Shown in pieces: positions 1-57,902 of a DNA stretch of 64,000 nucleotides. Both the position numbers and the translations under genes were made by a program. The stretch's first letter is position 1. Each line of letters opens with the position of its first letter. The notes beneath the pieces were generated by a model that had not been told where the DNA came from, ran no database searches, and worked only from the letters and a program-made list of their open reading frames with translations. The stretch comes from Corynebacterium sp. HMSC29G08 (GTDB taxonomy: Bacteria > Actinomycetota > Actinomycetes > Mycobacteriales > Mycobacteriaceae): positions 1 to 64,000 of the forward strand of contig NZ_KV786261.1 in assembly GCF_001806875.1 (NCBI RefSeq), given 5' to 3'.

Positions 1-76
1 CGGACTCACGGTACCAACTACCCCGAATCGACAGATCCGCCTCTCCGGCTCCGAGGCGTCGAACGACAACCTCCCA

Positions 77-155
77 GGCGTTGCGCAGGGCGATGACGAG
101 CCCGTTCATGGTGTCCTGGATCGTCTTGGACACGGGGAAGGTCTCGCCACCGGCG
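77..155 (-). pseudogene. remnant of ppc 3' end (about 26 codons)
   Basis: Read on the minus strand, this stretch closely matches the last ~26 codons of the intact ppc at 5043-7691 (SKTIQ.TMNGL..ALRNA), with roughly ten mismatches in 78 bases. The stop codon is replaced by TGG and similarity ends abruptly on both sides. It is a non-functional scrap. Because it lies on the far side of the bacteriocin and AlbA_2 genes, it suggests that this material came in next to a ppc 3' end, or that a second ppc allele was lost here. The divergence argues against a very recent duplication. Confidence 0.75.
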
Positions 156-3298: not shown

Positions 3299-3400
3299 TT
3301 TTCTTGCTTCGTAACCGGAAAATGGTTCCAAAACCACCCCAGAACACCCACAAAACCTTCACTGCCTGCGGAAACGTTTTCTTGCCTCTTTCTTGCTTCT
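3299..3400 (+). repeat. left direct repeat of AlbA_2 cassette 1
   Basis: This 102-base segment recurs at 4897-4997 in the same orientation. The first 19 bases (TTTCTTGCTTCGTAACCGG) and the last ~31 bases are identical in both copies, while the ~50 bases between have diverged but kept their length. The conserved ends contain three TTTCTTGC motifs, one at the left end and two at the right. The copy ends 16 bases before the AlbA_2 start codon, so it must contain that gene's promoter or operator. Confidence 0.85.
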
Positions 3401-3416
3401 GGGGGATACTTGAGAC

Positions 3417-4895
3417 ATGTCGCCACTTAATTCCACGCCGGAGCCTCAACTCATTGCCAGGATTAAACGATTCCTCGCTTTGCCTGCGGAACTCCCCTGG
3501 CTGGAGTTTAAGGAAAGCAGCGCCACGACCGGCCCGGAAATCGCCAAATACGTGAGTGCGCTGGGCAACTCGGCACGCCTTCATGATGAACCAGCAGGCT
3601 ACCTGATCTGGGGTGTAAGTGACGCTCATGAAATCGTGGGCACTTCGTTCCAATGGGAGACCGCGAAAGGCAAGGGCAACGAAGACCTTTTCCCGTGGCT
3701 GCAGCGTGTAGTCTCCCCCACGCCAACACTCTCCTTCGAGGCGGTCACAATCGAAGGCAAAACTGTGGTACTCCTCCGGGTTCCCGCTGCACTCTCGGCT
3801 CCTTACGCTTACGACGGAACCCGTTACTTCCGACAGGGCAGTTACACCAAGAACCTGATGGACTTTCCAGATCGCGAACGCGAGTTGTGGAGAAAGCTCA
3901 ACCAGTTCGAGTTTGAAACCAGCAATGCCGCGGAAGGCCTCGAACCAGAAGAAATCACCGACCTTCTCTCCTCCGACGCCTTCTTTAACAACCGGCCGGA
4001 ACTGCCACACAATGTTGGCAGCGCTCTCATTGACACAATGCGAGCGGCAGAAGCGATTACATATTCCCACGAATCAGGCTGGTGCATTCCCGCTTGGTCC
4101 GCACTGATGTACGCGCGCTCCCTCAAAGACTTCCCACAGCTCGCCGGCTTGGCCCCACGCGTGATGCATTTCGACGACACGTCGAGGAAACAGCTGCAAC
4201 GGGAGTGGGACTTTGACGAGGGATACGCCACGTCGTTTAGCAAGATTGTCACCTTGGTGAACACAGTGAGGCCTGGTGGGGAGACCATCGATTCAAGCGG
4301 ACGCCGAGTTGAAACCCCGCTGCTACCTACGGTGGCATTTCGCGAAGTGTTTGCGAATGCGCTCATGCACCAGGACCTGGAGCAGCGCGGTCAATACTTA
4401 ACCGTTGAAGTTTTCAGTGATCGTGTCGAAGTGACCAACCCTGGAACCCCGTTGGTCGATCCCCAGCGTTTTATTGACTCGGCTTCTACAACTCGCAATC
4501 CATGCCTCGGCGAAGCGCTTCGCCTGGCACACTTCGTCGAGCAACGTGGAAGCGGTTGGGACAAGATCGTTGCATCGCTGGAGGCAGAGCACTTTCCGCC
4601 GGCGCTCATTCGATCAAATGGCACAACCACCGTCACGCTGAGCGCCTACCGTCCGTTCAAGCTGATGACTACAGATGAAAAGATCGAAGCTGTTTACCAG
4701 CATGCGTGTCTTGGCTTTCTGGATAATCGCGCCGTCACGAATGCATCGGTGCGAAGTCGCTTCGGTCTCAGGGATACGCAGACCGCCCAGGCGACCCGTC
4801 TCATTAACGCCACGGTGGATGAAGGCCTCATCCGGCTCCACGACCCGAACGCGGGAACTCGCAACCGCCGCTATGTCCCTTTCTGGGCCGAGTAG
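3417..4895 (+). CDS. Schlafen AlbA_2 DNA-binding domain / ATP-binding protein (cassette 1)
   Basis: This 492-residue protein starts with an AlbA_2 domain (about residues 25-150, with WLEFKES near 28-34 and a YLIWGV strand near 62-67). It then carries an HATPase-like block (FREVFANALMHQD near 306-319) and ends in a winged-helix-like region. Such proteins are widespread in accessory DNA and are usually annotated as putative regulators; some relatives act in phage defence. The start follows a GGGGGA ribosome-binding site at suitable spacing. The left repeat reaches to 16 bases before the start and the right repeat begins directly after the stop. Self-binding to the repeats is my inference. Confidence 0.85.
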   Translation: MSPLNSTPEPQLIARIKRFLALPAELPWLEFKESSATTGPEIAKYVSALGNSARLHDEPAGYLIWGVSDAHEIVGTSFQWETAKGKGNEDLFPWLQRVVSPTPTLSFEAVTIEGKTVVLLRVPAALSAPYAYDGTRYFRQGSYTKNLMDFPDRERELWRKLNQFEFETSNAAEGLEPEEITDLLSSDAFFNNRPELPHNVGSALIDTMRAAEAITYSHESGWCIPAWSALMYARSLKDFPQLAGLAPRVMHFDDTSRKQLQREWDFDEGYATSFSKIVTLVNTVRPGGETIDSSGRRVETPLLPTVAFREVFANALMHQDLEQRGQYLTVEVFSDRVEVTNPGTPLVDPQRFIDSASTTRNPCLGEALRLAHFVEQRGSGWDKIVASLEAEHFPPALIRSNGTTTVTLSAYRPFKLMTTDEKIEAVYQHACLGFLDNRAVTNASVRSRFGLRDTQTAQATRLINATVDEGLIRLHDPNAGTRNRRYVPFWAE

Positions 4896-4896
4896 G

Positions 4897-4997
4897 TTTC
4901 TTGCTTCGTAACCGGGAAAAGGTGCCTAAACAGCCCGAAAACCGCCCCAAAAACGCTCCTACCTGGAGAAACGTTTTCTTGCCTCTTTCTTGCTTCT
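4897..4997 (+). repeat. right direct repeat of AlbA_2 cassette 1
   Basis: This is the second copy of the repeat at 3299-3400, beginning one base after the AlbA_2 stop codon. The terminal blocks with TTTCTTGC motifs are identical to the left copy and the middle is diverged. It has no obvious terminator hairpin, so its conservation is not explained by transcription termination. The ppc stop codon lies 45 bases further on. Confidence 0.85.
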
Positions 4998-5042
4998 GAA
5001 GCGGGTTGCAAGGCATCTACCCAGCGCCCCAGTCGCAGAAAC

Positions 5043-7691
5043 CTACCCCGCGTTGCGCAGCGCTGTGGCCAGCCCGTTCATGGTGACCTGGATCGTCTTG
5101 GACACGAGGAAGGTCTCGTCGCCGGCGCGGTAGCGGCGCAACAGCTCGAGCTGCACAGCGTTGAGCGGCAGCAGGTAGGGGTAGCGGCGCTTCAGCGAAC
5201 GGGCCTGACGCTGGTTCTCAGCAACCAGGTCGGTGTGCCCGGTGATGCGGAAGTAGACCTGCTTGGTGCGCTCGAATTCTTCGGCGATGAGTGTGTAGAT
5301 GCGCTCGGCCACCTCGCGGTCTTCCACCAGGTCGGCATAGAGGCGGGCCAGCGACAGCTCCGCCTTAGCCATGACTTGAGCCATGTTGGACAGTACGGAG
5401 CGGAAGAAGGGCCAGTCACGGTAGAGCTCGCGCAGGTCCTCCCAGCGCTCTTCGCTTTCGCCTGCCCAGCGCTCGACTGCGGTGCCGACGCCGAACCAGC
5501 CCGGCACGTTGGTGCGCGACTGCGCCCAGGACAGGACCCAGGGGATGGCGCGCAGATCGGAGATCGCGGTGGTTTGTTTGCGCGACGCCGGGCGGGAGCC
5601 GAGGTTGAGCTCGCCGATCTCATGCAGCGGGGTGGATTGGGTGAAGTAGTCGATGAAGCCGGGGTCGCCGATGAGTTCGTTGTACTTTTCGCCGGAGTAG
5701 GCGGCAAGGGTGCGCATGATCTCGTAGGCGCGGGTCGGGTCGGCGATCGGCTCCGTGTCCAGCAGGGAGGCCTCGAGCGTGCCGGCGACGAAGGCCTCGA
5801 GGTGGCGGCGCGCAGTCTCTGGCGAGCCGTACTTGGCGGAGATGATCTCGCCCTGCTCGGTGATGCGAATCGAGCCATCGACGGCGCCCTTGGGTTGGGC
5901 GAGGATGGCGTCGTAGGTGGGCCCACCACCACGGCCGACTGCCCCGCCGCGGCCGTGCGCGAGCCGAAGGCGGACGCCGTGGCGGTTGCAGAGTTCGACG
6001 AGGGCGAGTTCGGCGTCGTAAAGCGCCCAGTTGGCCTGCAGGTAACCGCCGTCCTTGTTGGAGTCGGAGTAGCCGAGCATGACCTCCTGGACGTCGCCGC
6101 GGGCGCGCAGGTGTTCGCGGTAGAACGGCAGTGACCAGAGGTCTTCGAGGATGCGGGCACCGTGCGCGAGGTCCTCGATGGTCTCAAACAGCGGGACGAC
6201 GTTGACGCTGCCCAGGCCGACCTCCTTGAGCAAGACCATGGGCTCCAGGATGTCGGAAACGGTCCCGGTCATGGCGATGATGCACTGCGCGATCGCGCCT
6301 TGGCCTAGGTCGCGGACGGCGCGTGCGGCGGCGGTGAGGATGCCCATTTCCTTGCGCGTGTCGTCGCTAAGCTGCGCCTCGGCGCGCAGCAGCGGGCGTG
6401 GGGTGCGCAGCTCCTCGACGAGCACCTCCACGCGCTTTTCCTCCGCAAGCGCGGCGTAGTCCTCGCACACAACGGCGACGCTAAGCACCTCGGCAACGAC
6501 CTTCTCGAAGGATTCGGAATTTTGGCGCAGGTCGAGCGTGTAGAGATGGAAGCCGAAGGTGGTCACCGCCGAGCGCAGGCGGTTCAGTCGGTCGTCGGCG
6601 ATGATGGCGCCGCCGTGGGCACGCAGGGAGGCGTCGATCACGTCCAGATCGGCGAGCAGCTCGCCGGGATCCGCATAGGGCGAGCCCTCGGCCACCGAGC
6701 CGGCAAGTACGTCGCGGGTGGCGGCGACGCGGTGGCGGATGCCGTAGATGGCGCGGCGATAGGGCTCATCGACGCGGGACTCGGCGGTGTTGTTGGCGGC
6801 GTCGGCAAGCTGGGAAAGCTCCGCCGAGCAGGTGGAATAGCGGTCAGAGAGGGAGAGCTCGCGCTCCAGCTCGCCTAATTCGTCGAGATAGTGGGCAAGC
6901 ACGGTGTCGGCGGCCTGGCGAGTGGCGTAGGTGAGCGTTTCGGCGTTGACGTAAGGGTTGCCGTCGTGGTCGCCGCCGATCCAGGAGCCGGGGCGCATCA
7001 CGGGGGTAAGGGCGAGGTCCCGGTCGAAGGTATCGCGCAGTTCGTAGCGGATCGCGCGGTTAAGCGCCGAGATCTGCTCGAGCAGAGAGAGTTTGTAGTA
7101 GCGCAGGCCGACGTCGATTTCGTCCTCCAGGCGCGGGCGCGCAATCCGGATGAGCGCGGTCTGCCACATCAGGGTCATGCGCAGTTCCATCTCGCGCTCG
7201 ATGGCGACCAGATCGGCGCCGGCGTGGAATTCGCTCAGCAGGCGCTTGATGTGCGTCTGAGTGTCAAAAACGGTGCGGCGGCGGGTCTCGGTCGGGTGCG
7301 CGGTGAGCACCGGGGAGACCTGCGCTCCGGCGATAAGTTCGGCAACCTTGTCGGCGTCTACCCCGCTATCTTTTAGGTGTGCGAAGCTGGTGCGCAGCGA
7401 AACGGGCGCGGCCGCCTTCTCATCGTCGAGGTCCTCAACCAGGTTGGTCAGCAGCGCAAAGTGGCTAAACGCGCGGGCAACCAGGTTCATCTTGGTGATA
7501 TCCATGTCACGAAAGACTGCGAGCAGGTCCTCCGGGGCGGCATCCCCGTGGGCGATGTCAAAGGCAGTGCGGCGGGTGGATTCGACCAAGTCGAAGATCT
7601 CCTGACCCTCCTGCTCAGCGAGCACGCGGCCGAGCACCCGGCCTAGGATTCGGATATCTTCACGGACGTGATCGGCGGGCTGGTCAGACAC
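5043..7691 (-). CDS. ppc: phosphoenolpyruvate carboxylase
   Basis: PEP carboxylase adds bicarbonate to phosphoenolpyruvate to give oxaloacetate, the main anaplerotic route in corynebacteria. The 882-residue protein has the catalytic TAHPTE motif near residue 129, the GGDHDGNP motif, the HGRGGAVGRGGGP loop near 570 and the C-terminal MNGLATALRNAG. I place the start at the GTG at 7691 (V-SDQPADHVREDIRILG), because homologues begin just before REDIR. The much longer frame running to 9101 lies antisense to metY and is not coding. In C. glutamicum ppc follows gap-pgk-tpi; here it sits beside metY, so it has been relocated or the region rearranged. Confidence 0.97.
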   Translation of the reverse strand: MSDQPADHVREDIRILGRVLGRVLAEQEGQEIFDLVESTRRTAFDIAHGDAAPEDLLAVFRDMDITKMNLVARAFSHFALLTNLVEDLDDEKAAAPVSLRTSFAHLKDSGVDADKVAELIAGAQVSPVLTAHPTETRRRTVFDTQTHIKRLLSEFHAGADLVAIEREMELRMTLMWQTALIRIARPRLEDEIDVGLRYYKLSLLEQISALNRAIRYELRDTFDRDLALTPVMRPGSWIGGDHDGNPYVNAETLTYATRQAADTVLAHYLDELGELERELSLSDRYSTCSAELSQLADAANNTAESRVDEPYRRAIYGIRHRVAATRDVLAGSVAEGSPYADPGELLADLDVIDASLRAHGGAIIADDRLNRLRSAVTTFGFHLYTLDLRQNSESFEKVVAEVLSVAVVCEDYAALAEEKRVEVLVEELRTPRPLLRAEAQLSDDTRKEMGILTAAARAVRDLGQGAIAQCIIAMTGTVSDILEPMVLLKEVGLGSVNVVPLFETIEDLAHGARILEDLWSLPFYREHLRARGDVQEVMLGYSDSNKDGGYLQANWALYDAELALVELCNRHGVRLRLAHGRGGAVGRGGGPTYDAILAQPKGAVDGSIRITEQGEIISAKYGSPETARRHLEAFVAGTLEASLLDTEPIADPTRAYEIMRTLAAYSGEKYNELIGDPGFIDYFTQSTPLHEIGELNLGSRPASRKQTTAISDLRAIPWVLSWAQSRTNVPGWFGVGTAVERWAGESEERWEDLRELYRDWPFFRSVLSNMAQVMAKAELSLARLYADLVEDREVAERIYTLIAEEFERTKQVYFRITGHTDLVAENQRQARSLKRRYPYLLPLNAVQLELLRRYRAGDETFLVSKTIQVTMNGLATALRNAG

Positions 7692-27690: not shown

Positions 27691-28107
27691 GTGATCCCCA
27701 TCAGTGCTGCCGAGGCCCTTAACCGAAAAACGCCGATCCCCACGCCGATCATCGTGCACGTGATTGGCTCACTTGGAGTTGCTGGGTCGGTAGCAGCCCT
27801 AGTTTCACAGCTGGCCGTTGGCACTAAGGTGATGCTCGCGCTGGCGTGCGTCATCGCGGCAGTCGCAGTCACGCTTGCACACCCCTACCGCAAGCAAATG
27901 CGGGCGTATGGGGAACAAAAGAACGTATATACGGGACCACAGATAAGCATGATGCTTCCGCTTATGGCTTGGTGGCTGCTCCTCATGTTGGCGCCACTCG
28001 CAGCGTGGCCCCTATGGGGCGTGGCAGTGACGTTTGTCGTATTGTTCGGCGCCGCGTGGGTACTGTACCCGCACGTGGATGGGTCGCGCCGACTGGCCTA
28101 CGCCTAA
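27691..28107 (+). CDS. hypothetical membrane protein
   Basis: A 138-residue protein with four hydrophobic stretches in two pairs (IIVHVIGSLGVAGSVAALV, VMLALACVIAAVAVTLA, then MLPLMAWWLLLMLAPLAAW and WGVAVTFVVLFGAAW). No family is recognised. The first available start is GTG 27691. However, about 29 codons upstream in the same frame (reading VEQAFYAGAASRRLKALAEE) look coding yet contain no start codon, so the gene may be 5'-truncated or use an odd start. It is divergent from imuA. Confidence 0.6.
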   Translation: MIPISAAEALNRKTPIPTPIIVHVIGSLGVAGSVAALVSQLAVGTKVMLALACVIAAVAVTLAHPYRKQMRAYGEQKNVYTGPQISMMLPLMAWWLLLMLAPLAAWPLWGVAVTFVVLFGAAWVLYPHVDGSRRLAYA

Positions 28108-28127
28108 AGCGCGAGTACTCGAAACAA

Positions 28128-28238
28128 TCTACTCGAAACCGTTTCGAGTAGATTGCTATCCGCAGGTCAGAGTAGGAAAATTCGTTTCGAGCACGTTTCA
28201 AGTACGTTTCAAGTAGCTCGAAATGCACTCAGAATTAC
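28128..28238 (+). repeat. direct repeat downstream of AlbA_2 cassette 2
   Basis: This 111-base segment matches 29641-29740 in the same orientation at about 90 percent identity, apart from one ~9-base unit present only here. It opens with a perfect 12-base inverted repeat (TCTACTCGAAAC-C-GTTTCGAGTAGA). It closes with a run of TTTCGAG/TTTCAAG half sites and a GCTCGAAA. An extra GTACTCGAAAC lies just before it at 28114. The repeat ends at the base before the AlbA_2 stop codon. Confidence 0.9.
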
Positions 28239-29630
28239 TTAACGCAATATCCCCTCGACATACCAAACAGCGCGCGGATCACGCGGACCGTTTCCGCGCC
28301 ACTGCACCAACCGTGCGTCGCGCATTGCCTGCAGCGCCCGGCGCACGGGCGGAGCGGAAAGCTCCAACACTTCAGCAATCTCACCTGTAGACATCGGCCG
28401 CCCATTTGTTTCAAGCACCGTCAGCACTTCCTCGGCGTAGCGAGGCAAGCTTTGCAAGACCTGGGGAGCTAAACGCTGAATCGCATTCAGCGTAAGCACG
28501 ACACTGCCACTTGTTTGGTTATACACCGGATCAGCAAATCCCACCCTGCGCATGCTGGCGAACATACGCCGGATGCCCTCCCCCAGCCCCTGACCGAGAC
28601 GAAGCTCCCTGGCTACACGGGCGATCATTGGGTTACGAACAAAGCAAGCTAACGATTCCGGCGTCCGCGGGTTAACCCACCCAAGAAACCGCCCAGGACT
28701 CGAAATCTCAATACGCCCCGGGTAGATTTCAAAGCGAATATGATCCCCGACCATGCTGTACGAGCGGTGCACTACTGCGTTGACTAACCCCTCAAGCCAG
28801 ACGTCATGGGGAATCAGGTTCTCGTCCTCAAACAAGCCCGAGCCCGTCAACCTACGAACACTAGGCAGCATTGCGCCGATCACTTCTTGGGCGGCCTGGA
28901 TTTGTTTCGGTATTGGTCCATCAAAACGCTGATCATCCATCAGCTGCTGCATCTGGCCAGGCAGTCGCTGATCCTCACCAAAGCGAAGCACCCGAATATG
29001 GGCGTTAGGGAAAAACTCTTGCGGGTTTTTAGCAAACAGCAAGATAGCGGCCGTACGCGGATTGCCTTCGCGGTCAATCAAATTCCGGGCCTTCAGAGCA
29101 TCTTCCGTAGAGGATGACCCAATCGCCTCGGCATAATCCCCGACCAGCTCCAGATCCAGGTCACTGCGGTCTACCCTCGGCGGAACCGTCGCGTCGTACT
29201 GCTGCTCGCCCTTGGTGTAGCGAAGCTCAAGAATATCGTCTGCCTTCAGCTGACGAGATTCATCGCCAACCCGCAGATAGCACTCGCCGGATTTCAAGTA
29301 ATGCACACGCTCACTTGGCAGTACATGGAAGAGATACACCTGCGCACCCTCCCCCACCTCGCAAACTTTTATCTGCACTCGGACTGTTGGATCTGTATGG
29401 TCCAACGCCGTCTGCCGCAGAGCATTGTCCTGCGTGGCACTTGGACGCCCATCAAACTCGCGGTCCGTAATACCAACGGCAATAATGCCGCCTTCAGCAT
29501 TCGCCATCCCCACAATGGTTTTGGCCAAATCCTTCGGCTTAATGCGGAAGGATTTGCGCTCAAACCACTGATCCTCTGGGACCTGCAGAAGCTGGCGGGG
29601 ATCCTCAGAAAAGTTGCGCTGCACACTCAC
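28239..29630 (-). CDS. Schlafen AlbA_2 DNA-binding domain / ATP-binding protein (cassette 2)
   Basis: A 463-residue protein with an N-terminal AlbA_2 domain (WFERKSFRIK near residue 22, MANAEGGIIAVGI near 41-53). A HATPase-like block (WLEGLVNAVVHRSY near 277-290) follows, and a C-terminal winged helix (about 400-455, MSTGEIAEVLELSAPPVRRAL). It shares architecture, but little obvious sequence, with the protein at 3417-4895. The start is a GTG at 29630 with a poor ribosome-binding site; the upstream repeat begins 10 bases away. It is probably an autoregulator or a defence protein; no function is proven. Confidence 0.85.
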   Translation of the reverse strand: MSVQRNFSEDPRQLLQVPEDQWFERKSFRIKPKDLAKTIVGMANAEGGIIAVGITDREFDGRPSATQDNALRQTALDHTDPTVRVQIKVCEVGEGAQVYLFHVLPSERVHYLKSGECYLRVGDESRQLKADDILELRYTKGEQQYDATVPPRVDRSDLDLELVGDYAEAIGSSSTEDALKARNLIDREGNPRTAAILLFAKNPQEFFPNAHIRVLRFGEDQRLPGQMQQLMDDQRFDGPIPKQIQAAQEVIGAMLPSVRRLTGSGLFEDENLIPHDVWLEGLVNAVVHRSYSMVGDHIRFEIYPGRIEISSPGRFLGWVNPRTPESLACFVRNPMIARVARELRLGQGLGEGIRRMFASMRRVGFADPVYNQTSGSVVLTLNAIQRLAPQVLQSLPRYAEEVLTVLETNGRPMSTGEIAEVLELSAPPVRRALQAMRDARLVQWRGNGPRDPRAVWYVEGILR

Positions 29631-29640
29631 AGCTCAACAT

Positions 29641-29740
29641 TCTACTCGAAACCGTTTCGAGTAGAATGTTATTCCCAGGTCAGACTAGGAAAATTCGTTT
29701 CGAGCACGTTTCGAGTAGCTCGAAACGCACCCAGAATCAC
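29641..29740 (+). repeat. direct repeat upstream of AlbA_2 cassette 2
   Basis: This copy of the repeat at 28128-28238 lies directly upstream of the minus-strand AlbA_2 gene. The 25-base palindrome (12-base arms around one C) is perfectly kept at 29641-29665. A second inverted pair (TTTCGAG-tag-CTCGAAA) lies at its right end. The palindrome is only 10 bases from the start codon, so a dimeric protein bound here would repress the gene. Confidence 0.9.
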
Positions 29741-29754
29741 GCACCCCCAACCGC

Positions 29755-30966
29755 CTAGCGGAAGCGCTTCGGCACGTCCGGCGCACCGAGGGTGAGCATC
29801 AGGCGGTTTGCCCAGTTGAAGAAGGCGGAGGCGTTGATGACGTCGATAATCGACACGTCATCGAGACCAGCCGCGCGCAGTGCCTCCACCTCGGCCTTGC
29901 CAAACGCGAAGGGGGTGCAGGTAAGCGCCACAGCTGCATCCCGGATCGCGTTCCACAGTGGGAAGCCCAGGTCGGTTTCGACGCCTTCGGCAAGGAGACG
30001 ATCAATAATCTTGGCGTCGCCGCCCTCGTCCTTTGCACGCGCCTGGTGGACGGAGGCACAGTACTCGCACCCGTTCAGCCGCGACACCACCGTCGCAGCC
30101 AGCTCACGCTCCGCGCGCGCAAGGCCGCCTTCCGTGTTGTAGAAAATGTCCAGGTCCGTCAGGGTGCGCGCCTTCAGCGCCGCCGGGTCATGCGCCAGAA
30201 GACGGAAGTACTCCATATCAATACGCTCAGGTTTGATCAGCGCATCAATGTGCTCCTCGGTGAACTCATCCTTCGGCAGCGGTGCAACCCATGGCTTCCA
30301 TCCCAGCGAGTGGTTGACAAAGCCTGCCGGTGCCACAACCTCGGGCTGCAGGGTTGCTGGCGTTGGCGCCCAGCCCGGATCCGCAACACCAGCAGCGCGC
30401 GCGGGTGCTTCTACCGAAGCCCCCGAAACCCCAGCGGCACCAGAAGCGCCTGCGAGCACCCGCACGCCGTGCGCCACGCGCAGCTGAAACGCCACAAACG
30501 AGATCAGCTGGGACAACGATACGATGCCGGTTTCGGTGTAGCCAGCCTCCTGCAGGTGACCGATCGCCGCAGGTGAGGCATCCTTCGGGTGGAAGGTAAG
30601 CAGGTGTGCGAAGTCGAAAGCAGCGGCAAGTTTCGCATCCAGCCCCTCAACATCACCAAACAAGACGAAATCCCCGCCCGCATACGGACCTGTGGAACGG
30701 CCCGCTTTCACGGCGGCGGCGACAACCTCAACCAACGCCTCGTCCTCATCACTGAGCAGGTCGGCGTAGAAGTCGAAGGCGCGCGCGTCGCCAGAAATTC
30801 CCGCGATAAAGGCGGCGGTGGCGTAGCGATGGTTGGCGGGGACGTCGATAAGCAAACTGCTCTCAAACAGTGCCTCAAAACTGCGCTCAGCATTCGCCAC
30901 CGCGTCCGGACGAGCCGAACGCTCAGGCAGCGTAACCCCAGCTAGAACATCAATAATGTTAGACAA
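29755..30966 (-). CDS. fused CMD domain and alkylhydroperoxidase (AhpD-like) protein
   Basis: This 403-residue protein joins two carboxymuconolactone-decarboxylase-fold domains usually made as separate Avi_7170- and Avi_7169-type proteins. The N-terminal domain spans about 1-165; a Gly/Ala/Pro linker covers about 170-215. The C-terminal AhpD domain carries LNGCEYCASVHQ, with the redox CxxC and His. It overlaps the end of the ABC ATPase gene and is the last gene of the transporter operon. In other bacteria these domains travel with a KPN_01854-type binding protein and a luciferase-like monooxygenase; no such monooxygenase is seen here. Confidence 0.85.
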   Translation of the reverse strand: MSNIIDVLAGVTLPERSARPDAVANAERSFEALFESSLLIDVPANHRYATAAFIAGISGDARAFDFYADLLSDEDEALVEVVAAAVKAGRSTGPYAGGDFVLFGDVEGLDAKLAAAFDFAHLLTFHPKDASPAAIGHLQEAGYTETGIVSLSQLISFVAFQLRVAHGVRVLAGASGAAGVSGASVEAPARAAGVADPGWAPTPATLQPEVVAPAGFVNHSLGWKPWVAPLPKDEFTEEHIDALIKPERIDMEYFRLLAHDPAALKARTLTDLDIFYNTEGGLARAERELAATVVSRLNGCEYCASVHQARAKDEGGDAKIIDRLLAEGVETDLGFPLWNAIRDAAVALTCTPFAFGKAEVEALRAAGLDDVSIIDVINASAFFNWANRLMLTLGAPDVPKRFR

Positions 30967-57786: not shown

Positions 57787-57902
57787 CTGGCTTGTGTTCT
57801 AGCTGGCTTGTGTTCTAGCTGGCTTGAGCCGGCCTAGCGCTCGCTTCTGCTGAACCTCTGCTGGAGCCGGCCTAGCGCTGGCTTCTGCTGAACCTCTGCT
57901 GG
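57783..57902. repeat. two tandem repeat arrays after the hydrolase-like gene
   Basis: A 16-base unit (GTTCTAGCTGGCTTGT) occurs about three times at 57780-57826, starting inside the stop codon region of the upstream gene. A 38-base unit (beginning GAGCCGGCCTAGCGCT) follows twice at 57827-57902. No coding frame is apparent. Confidence 0.8.

What the first reader, a model, noticed from the sequence alone, without database searches (positions are those of the whole stretch)
28128..29740. Second AlbA_2 gene with a different private repeat pair (cassette 2)
The gene at 28239-29630 is flanked by ~90 percent identical direct repeats. The downstream copy ends at the base before the stop codon; the upstream copy starts 10 bases before the GTG start. 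Each copy has a perfect 25-base palindrome plus further TTTCGAG half sites. The repeat sequence is unrelated to that of cassette 1.
Basis: partly seen in the sequence, partly recalled or inferred. Interest (0 to 1): 0.85.

Follow-up and report, generated by a model that had tools for sequence, protein, structure and literature searches.

The report
Single gene between its binding-site repeats
A bacterial gene of the Schlafen-like AlbA_2 family sits between two near-identical DNA repeats that its own protein probably binds, and in related bacteria the unit is found at many different places, is often reduced to one leftover repeat, or is absent, as expected of a small mobile element of an undescribed kind.

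Summary
Gene 28239-29630 (-; AlbA_2, GHKL ATPase, winged helix) lies between direct repeats at 28123-28238 and 29636-29740, with no other copy found in the genome. The genus is Corynebacterium. Of 41 orthologous loci examined (44 found), 33 have such a pair, 77-100% identical within the locus; no control pair scores alike (0 of 72; 0 of 112). The units occupy many sites (18 labels among 36 rows). Eighteen genomes without the gene keep the palindrome, 14 of them at sites where relatives have the whole unit; other relatives have no repeat there. Half-sites co-vary with the recognition helix. Cassette 1 behaves alike and shares a core motif. I read this as a single-gene, repeat-bounded mobile cassette whose protein binds its ends. 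Binding, excision and the moving enzyme are unproven; paired operators are the main rival. No description was seen in the listings.

The parts
28239..29630 (-). AlbA_2 - HATPase_c_4 (GHKL) - winged-helix protein, 463 aa, GTG start; the only gene recognised between the repeats
   Evidence: Pfam SLFN_AlbA_2 1.2e-16, HATPase_c_4 1.1e-15, HTH_24 6e-05; AlphaFold model mean pLDDT 85.6
29636..29740 (-). upstream repeat (U), 5 nt from the start codon
28123..28238 (-). downstream repeat (D), ends at the base before the stop codon
29636..29670 (.). 35-nt perfect palindrome of two TACTCGAAA half-sites in U
   Evidence: arms 29636-29652 and 29654-29670
28125..28155 (.). 31-nt perfect palindrome of two TACTCGAAA half-sites in D
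   Evidence: arms 28125-28139 and 28141-28155
29668..29684 (-). core motif TCTGACCTGGGAATAAC between palindrome and tandem half-sites in U
   Evidence: read by eye; motif class counted
28155..28171 (-). core motif TCTGACCTGCGGATAGC in D
   Evidence: read by eye; motif class counted
29696..29740 (-). block with half-site-like units about 11 nt apart in U
   Evidence: repeat family D2
28183..28238 (-). block with half-site-like units about 11 nt apart in D, one 11-nt unit more than U
   Evidence: repeat family D2
3417..4895 (+). cassette 1: second AlbA_2 - HATPase_c_4 gene in the same arrangement
3300..3401 (+). cassette 1 upstream repeat (TTTCTTGC half-sites)
4897..4998 (+). cassette 1 downstream repeat, 81% identical to the upstream one

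Best explanation
A single-gene mobile cassette bounded by about 100-bp direct repeats. Shown from sequence: the unit repeat-gene-repeat sits at many chromosomal sites in the genus; at the same site relatives have the whole unit, one leftover repeat, or no repeat; at some sites the two repeats of a locus are more alike than the same repeat in two species; half-sites co-vary with the winged-helix recognition residues. Inferred: the protein binds the half-site arrays of both repeats through its winged helix; at the upstream copy, whose palindrome abuts the start codon, this would also control its own gene; recombination between the repeats deletes the gene and leaves a solo repeat. Not shown: which enzyme inserts the unit. 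The AlbA_2 domain (Schlafen fold) with its GHKL ATPase is the only encoded candidate. The phage context suggests that the gene may also be kept for a use such as phage defence.
For: 33 of 41 examined orthologous loci (of 44 found) have a direct-repeat pair, 75-290 bp, 77-100% identical. Controls: 0 of 72 and 0 of 112. Eighteen site labels among 36 tree rows; the window element groups with elements at two other sites (99/98 support, 10 rows, 3 sites). Palindrome pattern in 40 of 242 genomes, reversed-pattern control 0; 18 of the 40 have no orthologue-level gene. Of these 18, 14 have the copy at a site of whole units: six at the window's site (one with a gene remnant), four at site B (two of them tandem-duplicated), two at site I, two at site G. 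No repeat at site G in 10 of 13 loci shown, flanks 86-97% identical. Solos of G219 and G220 are D/U chimeras with different crossover points. Three two-species sites: 91-98% within a locus, 82-90% between species. Recognition helix: 25 of 28 loci with TACT[C/A]G half-sites have a non-basic residue where 47 of 48 loci with other half-sites have R or K. Cassette 1: 13 of 13 compared loci have the pair; at one site 4 whole, 5 solo, 1 reduced, 3 none of 13.
Against: No transposase, integrase or recombinase domain was found in the protein. The third acidic residue of the Schlafen-type active site is D in only 25 of 42 homologues, so nuclease activity is doubtful. Each of the 44 genomes has one orthologue-level copy, so no direct sign of copying. 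Crossovers in solos at different points suggest general homologous recombination, not a fixed site. No consistent target duplication; CCCC at site B may be microhomology, and the repeat-free allele G073 could be a secondary precise loss. 8 of 41 loci gave no pair, among them the closest relative G146; one of the 8, L057, does have shared repeats and was missed because its gene bounds were merged. At sites B, C and J within-locus and between-species identities are alike. The helix correlation largely follows clades. 48 of 65 homologous loci outside the genus show no pair. The core motif is absent from a third family.
Confidence: 0.58

Rival explanations
1. Paired operators, not element ends. 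The protein is an autorepressor that binds arrays before and after its gene, perhaps looping the DNA or spreading along it. The downstream copy is a regulatory duplication, and the gene moves only by ordinary horizontal transfer.
For: A half-site palindrome just before the start codon is also seen outside the genus and in phages without a repeat pair. The protein has a winged helix like ArsR/SmtB-type regulators. Streptococcus and Fusobacterium relatives have short-unit arrays downstream.
Against: Spacers between half-sites are also near identical within a pair. At site B the unit ends within about 20 bp of the half-sites on both sides. Solo copies persist without the gene. A sigma-70 consensus scan found no promoter in 28000-29900 (weak, since promoters of this genus may differ).
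Confidence: 0.27
2. The gene is a passenger (prophage or island accessory gene, perhaps for phage defence) moved by integrases supplied elsewhere; the repeats are att-like or duplicated target sequences.
For: In Mycobacterium phage Squirty and Gordonia phages the gene lies in a region beside or near the integrase where close phages have other genes. In some actinobacteria the lone gene lies between copies of a tRNA end or of other flanking sequence: L267, L321, L280, L266, L313.
Against: The window repeats are half-site arrays and have no other match in the genome. No second gene was recognised between them.
Confidence: 0.1
3. An ordinary old tandem duplication of the promoter region with no function.
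For: Duplications occur; some loci have only one copy.
Against: The pair recurs in 33 of 41 loci at many sites and, with other half-sites, in the cassette 1 family and in a third family; controls 0 of 72 and 0 of 112.
Confidence: 0.03

Closest known systems
RAYT genes with REP palindromes (PMC2817692, passages seen)
   Same: A single gene bounded by palindrome-bearing repeats; repeats without the gene exist too.
   Different: RAYT is a tyrosine (IS200/IS605-related) transposase, its two REPs are inverted and REPs are abundant in the genome; here no transposase domain, direct repeats, two copies only.
LTR-type elements and solo LTRs (general knowledge)
   Same: Direct terminal repeats, solo repeats by recombination, repeats alike within a locus.
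   Different: No reverse transcriptase; about 1.4-kb single gene; repeats are arrays of short sites.
AlbA_2 - HATPase_c_4 - HTH proteins (COG2865-like, name recalled); PDB 3lmm, C. diphtheriae DIP2311
   Same: Similar domain order and fold (VIA Z 24.7, rmsd 13.4, 400 aligned).
   Different: DIP2311 is called of unknown function (PMC8780604, one passage); 560-590 aa relatives tested in the genus mostly lack flanking repeats.
Schlafen-domain nucleases (SLFN11/5, SAMD9; PUCH, PMC10567574, passages seen)
   Same: AlbA_2 domain fold (SLFN11 7fex Z 10.1, rmsd 4.0, 121 aligned).
   Different: Third acidic residue not conserved; no RNA role shown.
[quoted passage not shown]
   Same: Phage homologues occupy a comparable accessory place near the integrase.
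   Different: I know of no defence test of this gene; PADLOC gives pAgo-related and one weak Csa3 match only.

Membership tests
RAYT / REP | IS200/IS605-like tyrosine transposase domain | tested here: not met
   Pfam finds SLFN_AlbA_2, HATPase_c_4 and HTH-type models only
RAYT / REP | two REPs in inverted orientation, abundant in the genome | tested here: not met
   repeats are direct; only these two copies found in the genome
DDE-type insertion sequence | DDE transposase and terminal inverted repeats | tested here: not met
   (each repeat is itself palindromic, but the pair is direct)
DDE-type insertion sequence | short target-site duplication | tested here: inconclusive
   possible CCCC at site B only
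Integrase-type element with att sites | own integrase gene inside the unit | tested here: not met
   one recognised gene between the repeats
Integrase-type element with att sites | repeat equals a host sequence such as a tRNA 3' end | tested here: not met
   window repeat has no other match in the genome; tRNA-derived repeats seen in some distant homologues
Schlafen-type nuclease | AlbA_2 / Schlafen core fold | tested here: met
Schlafen-type nuclease | three conserved acidic active-site residues | tested here: not met
   alignment positions 18 E 42/42, 23 E or D 42/42, 55 D only 25/42 (which positions correspond was judged by motif, recalled)
AlbA_2-GHKL-winged-helix regulator | three domains with intact GHKL ATP-site residues | tested here: met
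   alignment positions 279 E, 283 N, 312 G, 316 G, 349 G, 351 G invariant in 42 of 42 (roles recalled)
AlbA_2-GHKL-winged-helix regulator | binds operators at its own promoter | not testable with these tools
   only co-variation of half-site and helix
Known anti-phage defence system | match to a described system | tested here: inconclusive
   PADLOC: pAgo-related profiles and a weak Csa3 match only

The most novel reading that the evidence does not exclude
The AlbA_2-GHKL-winged-helix protein is itself the mobility protein of a new class of single-gene element: it assembles on arrays of half-sites about 11 bp apart in both direct repeats, and its Schlafen-fold domain acts at the shared TTGACCTGCGGAAAC-like core to excise or insert the unit. 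The cassette 1 family would use the same plan with another half-site code; a third family with the same layout lacks this core and would need another.
Probability: 0.25. Interest if true: 0.92.

Novelty: categorically new. Interest (0 to 1): 0.8.

Why it matters
Genes of this kind are common (126 of 242 genomes of this genus have a match to the query at 1e-10) and are annotated, for example in phages, as helicase or hypothetical protein. If the family travels as repeat-bounded cassettes, it is a kind of mobile element with no known recombinase, easy to test, and a natural example of a DNA-binding protein and its site changing together. It would also link the Schlafen fold, known for antiviral proteins in animals, to mobile genes and possibly defence in bacteria and phages.

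Tried and rejected
Chance or low-complexity repeats: rejected by controls. Immunity repressor of phages: disfavoured, since relatives Kita and MichelleMyBell have a separate annotated repressor; not checked in Squirty or Nymphadora themselves. Larger composite unit in G135/G136 (palindromes 10 kb apart): one palindrome belongs to another, solo site also seen in G161. G075/G159 double palindromes: read by eye as a later tandem duplication around a solo copy, with a piece of the neighbouring gene. Solo repeats as the pre-insertion target: disfavoured by chimeric solos, the G092 remnant and repeat-free alleles. Core motif as a universal feature: it fails in the third family (2 of 22 copies against 1.8 expected); the motif class was chosen after seeing the sequences. 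Host-versus-element divergence as proof of recent transfer: one pair is clear (cassette 1 gene of G116 and G151 99.0%, U 100%, flanks 96% and 90%). Searches of 'relatives' for empty sites gave mostly distant genomes, and the query included the repeat by mistake. The pattern had the wrong spacing and says nothing. Literature: in the listings (titles and abstract starts) I saw nothing on AlbA_2 genes between direct repeats; the library is open-access only.

VIA-align rows are dominated by winged-helix chains, so the absence of a transposase fold there is not evidence.

Full report
What is there. The gene at 28239-29630 (-) encodes a 463-aa protein with an AlbA_2 domain, a GHKL-type ATPase domain and a winged helix. 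It lies between direct repeats: D at 28123-28238, which ends at the base before the stop codon, and U at 29636-29740, which begins 5 nt from the start codon. Each repeat has, in gene direction, half-site-like units about 11 nt apart, a core like TCTGACCTG(C/G)GGATA(A/G)C, and a palindrome of two TACTCGAAA half-sites. The whole-genome search finds these two copies only, and all six TACTCGAAA words of the window lie in or at the edge of them (0.15 expected).

It recurs. In 242 genomes of the genus 126 have a match at 1e-10; 44, the window's included, have an orthologue-level match (E below 1e-62). I examined the window and 40 of the other 43. A direct-repeat pair was found in 33 of 41, 75-290 bp long and 77-100% identical. 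One of the eight misses (L057) shares repeats; G240 has a second, longer copy 6.5 kb away. Controls: 0 of 72 neighbouring ORFs exceeded 45 bits; 0 of 112 window pairs elsewhere in related loci exceeded 40 bits.

It changes place. Flanking-gene clusters gave 18 site labels among the 36 rows of a protein tree (five broken or partial rows were left out). All labels together need 17 changes, the least possible, so elements of one clade share a site. Labels were set by eye, and loci without shared flanks were taken as different. The window element and its G146 sister group with five elements at site C and three at site B (99/98 support), apart from other elements at the window's own site A, which needs three changes. 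So units have relocated, or site A was hit more than once.

It is lost to solo repeats. The palindrome pattern CTACTNGAAANNNTTTCNAGTAG is in 40 of 242 genomes; the reversed control has none. Eighteen of the 40 lack an orthologue-level gene. All 18 were read. At the window's site, G002, G053, G154, G187 and G236 have one copy, and G092 has two copies with a piece of the gene's 3' end between them. Copies also lie where G016, G151 and G155 (site B: G115, G116, G075, G159), G123 and G200 (site I: G108, G170) and G106 (site G: G219, G220) have whole units. That is 14 of 18; for G014, G020, G158 and G161 no whole unit at the same site was seen. At site G, 10 of 13 loci have no repeat, with flanks 86-97% identical to the query. 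The solos of G219 and G220, compared with the whole unit of G106, join the outer half of D to the outer half of U with crossovers at different points. At site B, G073 has the two flanks directly joined, possibly with a CCCC duplication in the others; since its near relatives have whole or solo copies, this could be a secondary precise loss. At site A several more distant genomes (for example G061, G062, G020) have no half-site after the same gene.

Repeats evolve together at some sites. At sites P, I and the G010/G059 site the two repeats of a locus are 91-98% identical, while the same repeat in the two species is 82-90% identical. At sites B, C and J within and between values are alike, so the signal is not universal.

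The protein probably reads the repeats. Across 76 loci with a half-site found by the script, those with TACT[C/A]G have a non-basic residue at the S-x-P position of the recognition helix in 25 of 28; those with TACTCT, TACTGG, TACTTG, TACTGT or TACTGC have R or K in 47 of 48. Of 106 loci, 29 without a half-site that met the script's form (among them three family members with TACTTGATA) and one with a gap in the helix were not counted. Much of this follows clades, so it is a correlation, not proof.

It is a wider plan. Cassette 1 of the same window (gene 3417-4895, repeats 3300-3401 and 4897-4998) uses TTTCTTGC half-sites. Its family is in 20 of 242 genomes at 1e-60, the window's included; all 13 loci compared have the pair, 70-99% identical; the other seven (broken, at a contig edge or distant) were not compared. 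At one site (after a gene that looks like idh, name recalled) 13 near genomes show 4 whole, 5 solo, 1 reduced to a single unit and 3 without. A core motif class, chosen after seeing the sequences, is in 52 of 66 family-1 and 20 of 26 cassette-1 repeat copies (3.2 and 1.2 expected in mononucleotide shuffles) but in 2 of 22 copies of a third family (1.8 expected). That third family, with AACTTCCCAC- or AACACTCAACAC-type units, makes up 11 of the 12 loci with a pair among 40 other AlbA_2 loci; the 40 were 39 of the best-scoring weaker matches (a few rows skipped) and the window genome's third AlbA_2 gene, not a random sample.

Outside the genus 17 of 65 tested loci (of 66; one had a short flank) have a pair over 40 bits. 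Some duplicate their own half-site array (L297, L301, L307, L308, L281). Others have the lone gene between copies of other sequence: a tRNA-Gly piece in L267, a tRNA-SeC piece in L321, a tRNA-Ser end with its terminator in L280, 59 bp in L266 with about 35 bp before the start codon and 20 bp after the gene. In phages Squirty and Nymphadora the gene lies near or beside the integrase in a region where close phages have other genes; two such relatives have a separate annotated repressor. Cluster N phages keep tested defence genes in such a region (PMC7542560, passages).

The protein fold. The AlphaFold model (pLDDT 85.6) matches PDB 3lmm (Z 24.7, rmsd 13.4, 400 aligned; C. diphtheriae DIP2311, unknown function) and, in parts, Schlafen domains (7fex Z 10.1, rmsd 4.0, 121 aligned), histidine-kinase ATPase domains (6rh7 Z 9.8, rmsd 3.2, 118 aligned) and winged-helix regulators. 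ATP-site residues are invariant in 42 homologues; of the Schlafen-type acidic residues two are kept and the third is D in 25 of 42, so I do not claim a nuclease.

Reading. A repeat-bounded single-gene unit that appears at many sites, is deleted between its repeats, and whose protein co-varies with the repeats is best described as a mobile cassette. What inserts it is open. The paired-operator rival explains the upstream array well and may be true in addition. In the listings I saw no paper on AlbA_2 genes between repeats; the library is open-access only. I rate it categorically new on the condition that the mobility is its own; if the rival holds it is a variant of an autoregulated accessory gene.

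Noticed in passing
window 68-155 and 5040-5127: An 88-bp direct repeat (86%) around the cassette 1 region; the second copy lies at the 3' end of the PEP carboxylase gene, so the region may hold an older duplication or insertion.
   Followed up: no
window 57822-57897: A 38-bp unit repeated twice in tandem (95%).
   Followed up: no
L174 2806-4545 (G000 C28): A third AlbA_2 gene (579 aa) in the same genome without a clear flanking repeat (26.5 bits).
   Followed up: partly
L129 3890-4109 (Streptococcus respiraculi plasmid): A long array of 10-bp TAGTTTATTG units just after a distant homologue that lies between a LexA-type regulator and an integrase.
   Followed up: no
L298, L303, L296, L291: A degenerate 69-bp direct repeat (26-40 bits) around the homologue; in L298 it reads by eye like the 3' end of a tyrosine recombinase gene.
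   Followed up: no
L267, L321, L280: Lone AlbA_2 gene between a complete tRNA gene and a partial copy of its end: apparent integrase-less mini-elements.
   Followed up: partly
L338-L341 (G015, G116, G151, G211): Cassette 1 gene and U repeat are nearly identical in G116 and G151 while flanks differ by 4-10%; in G211 the two repeats are only 79% alike, as if of different origin.
   Followed up: partly
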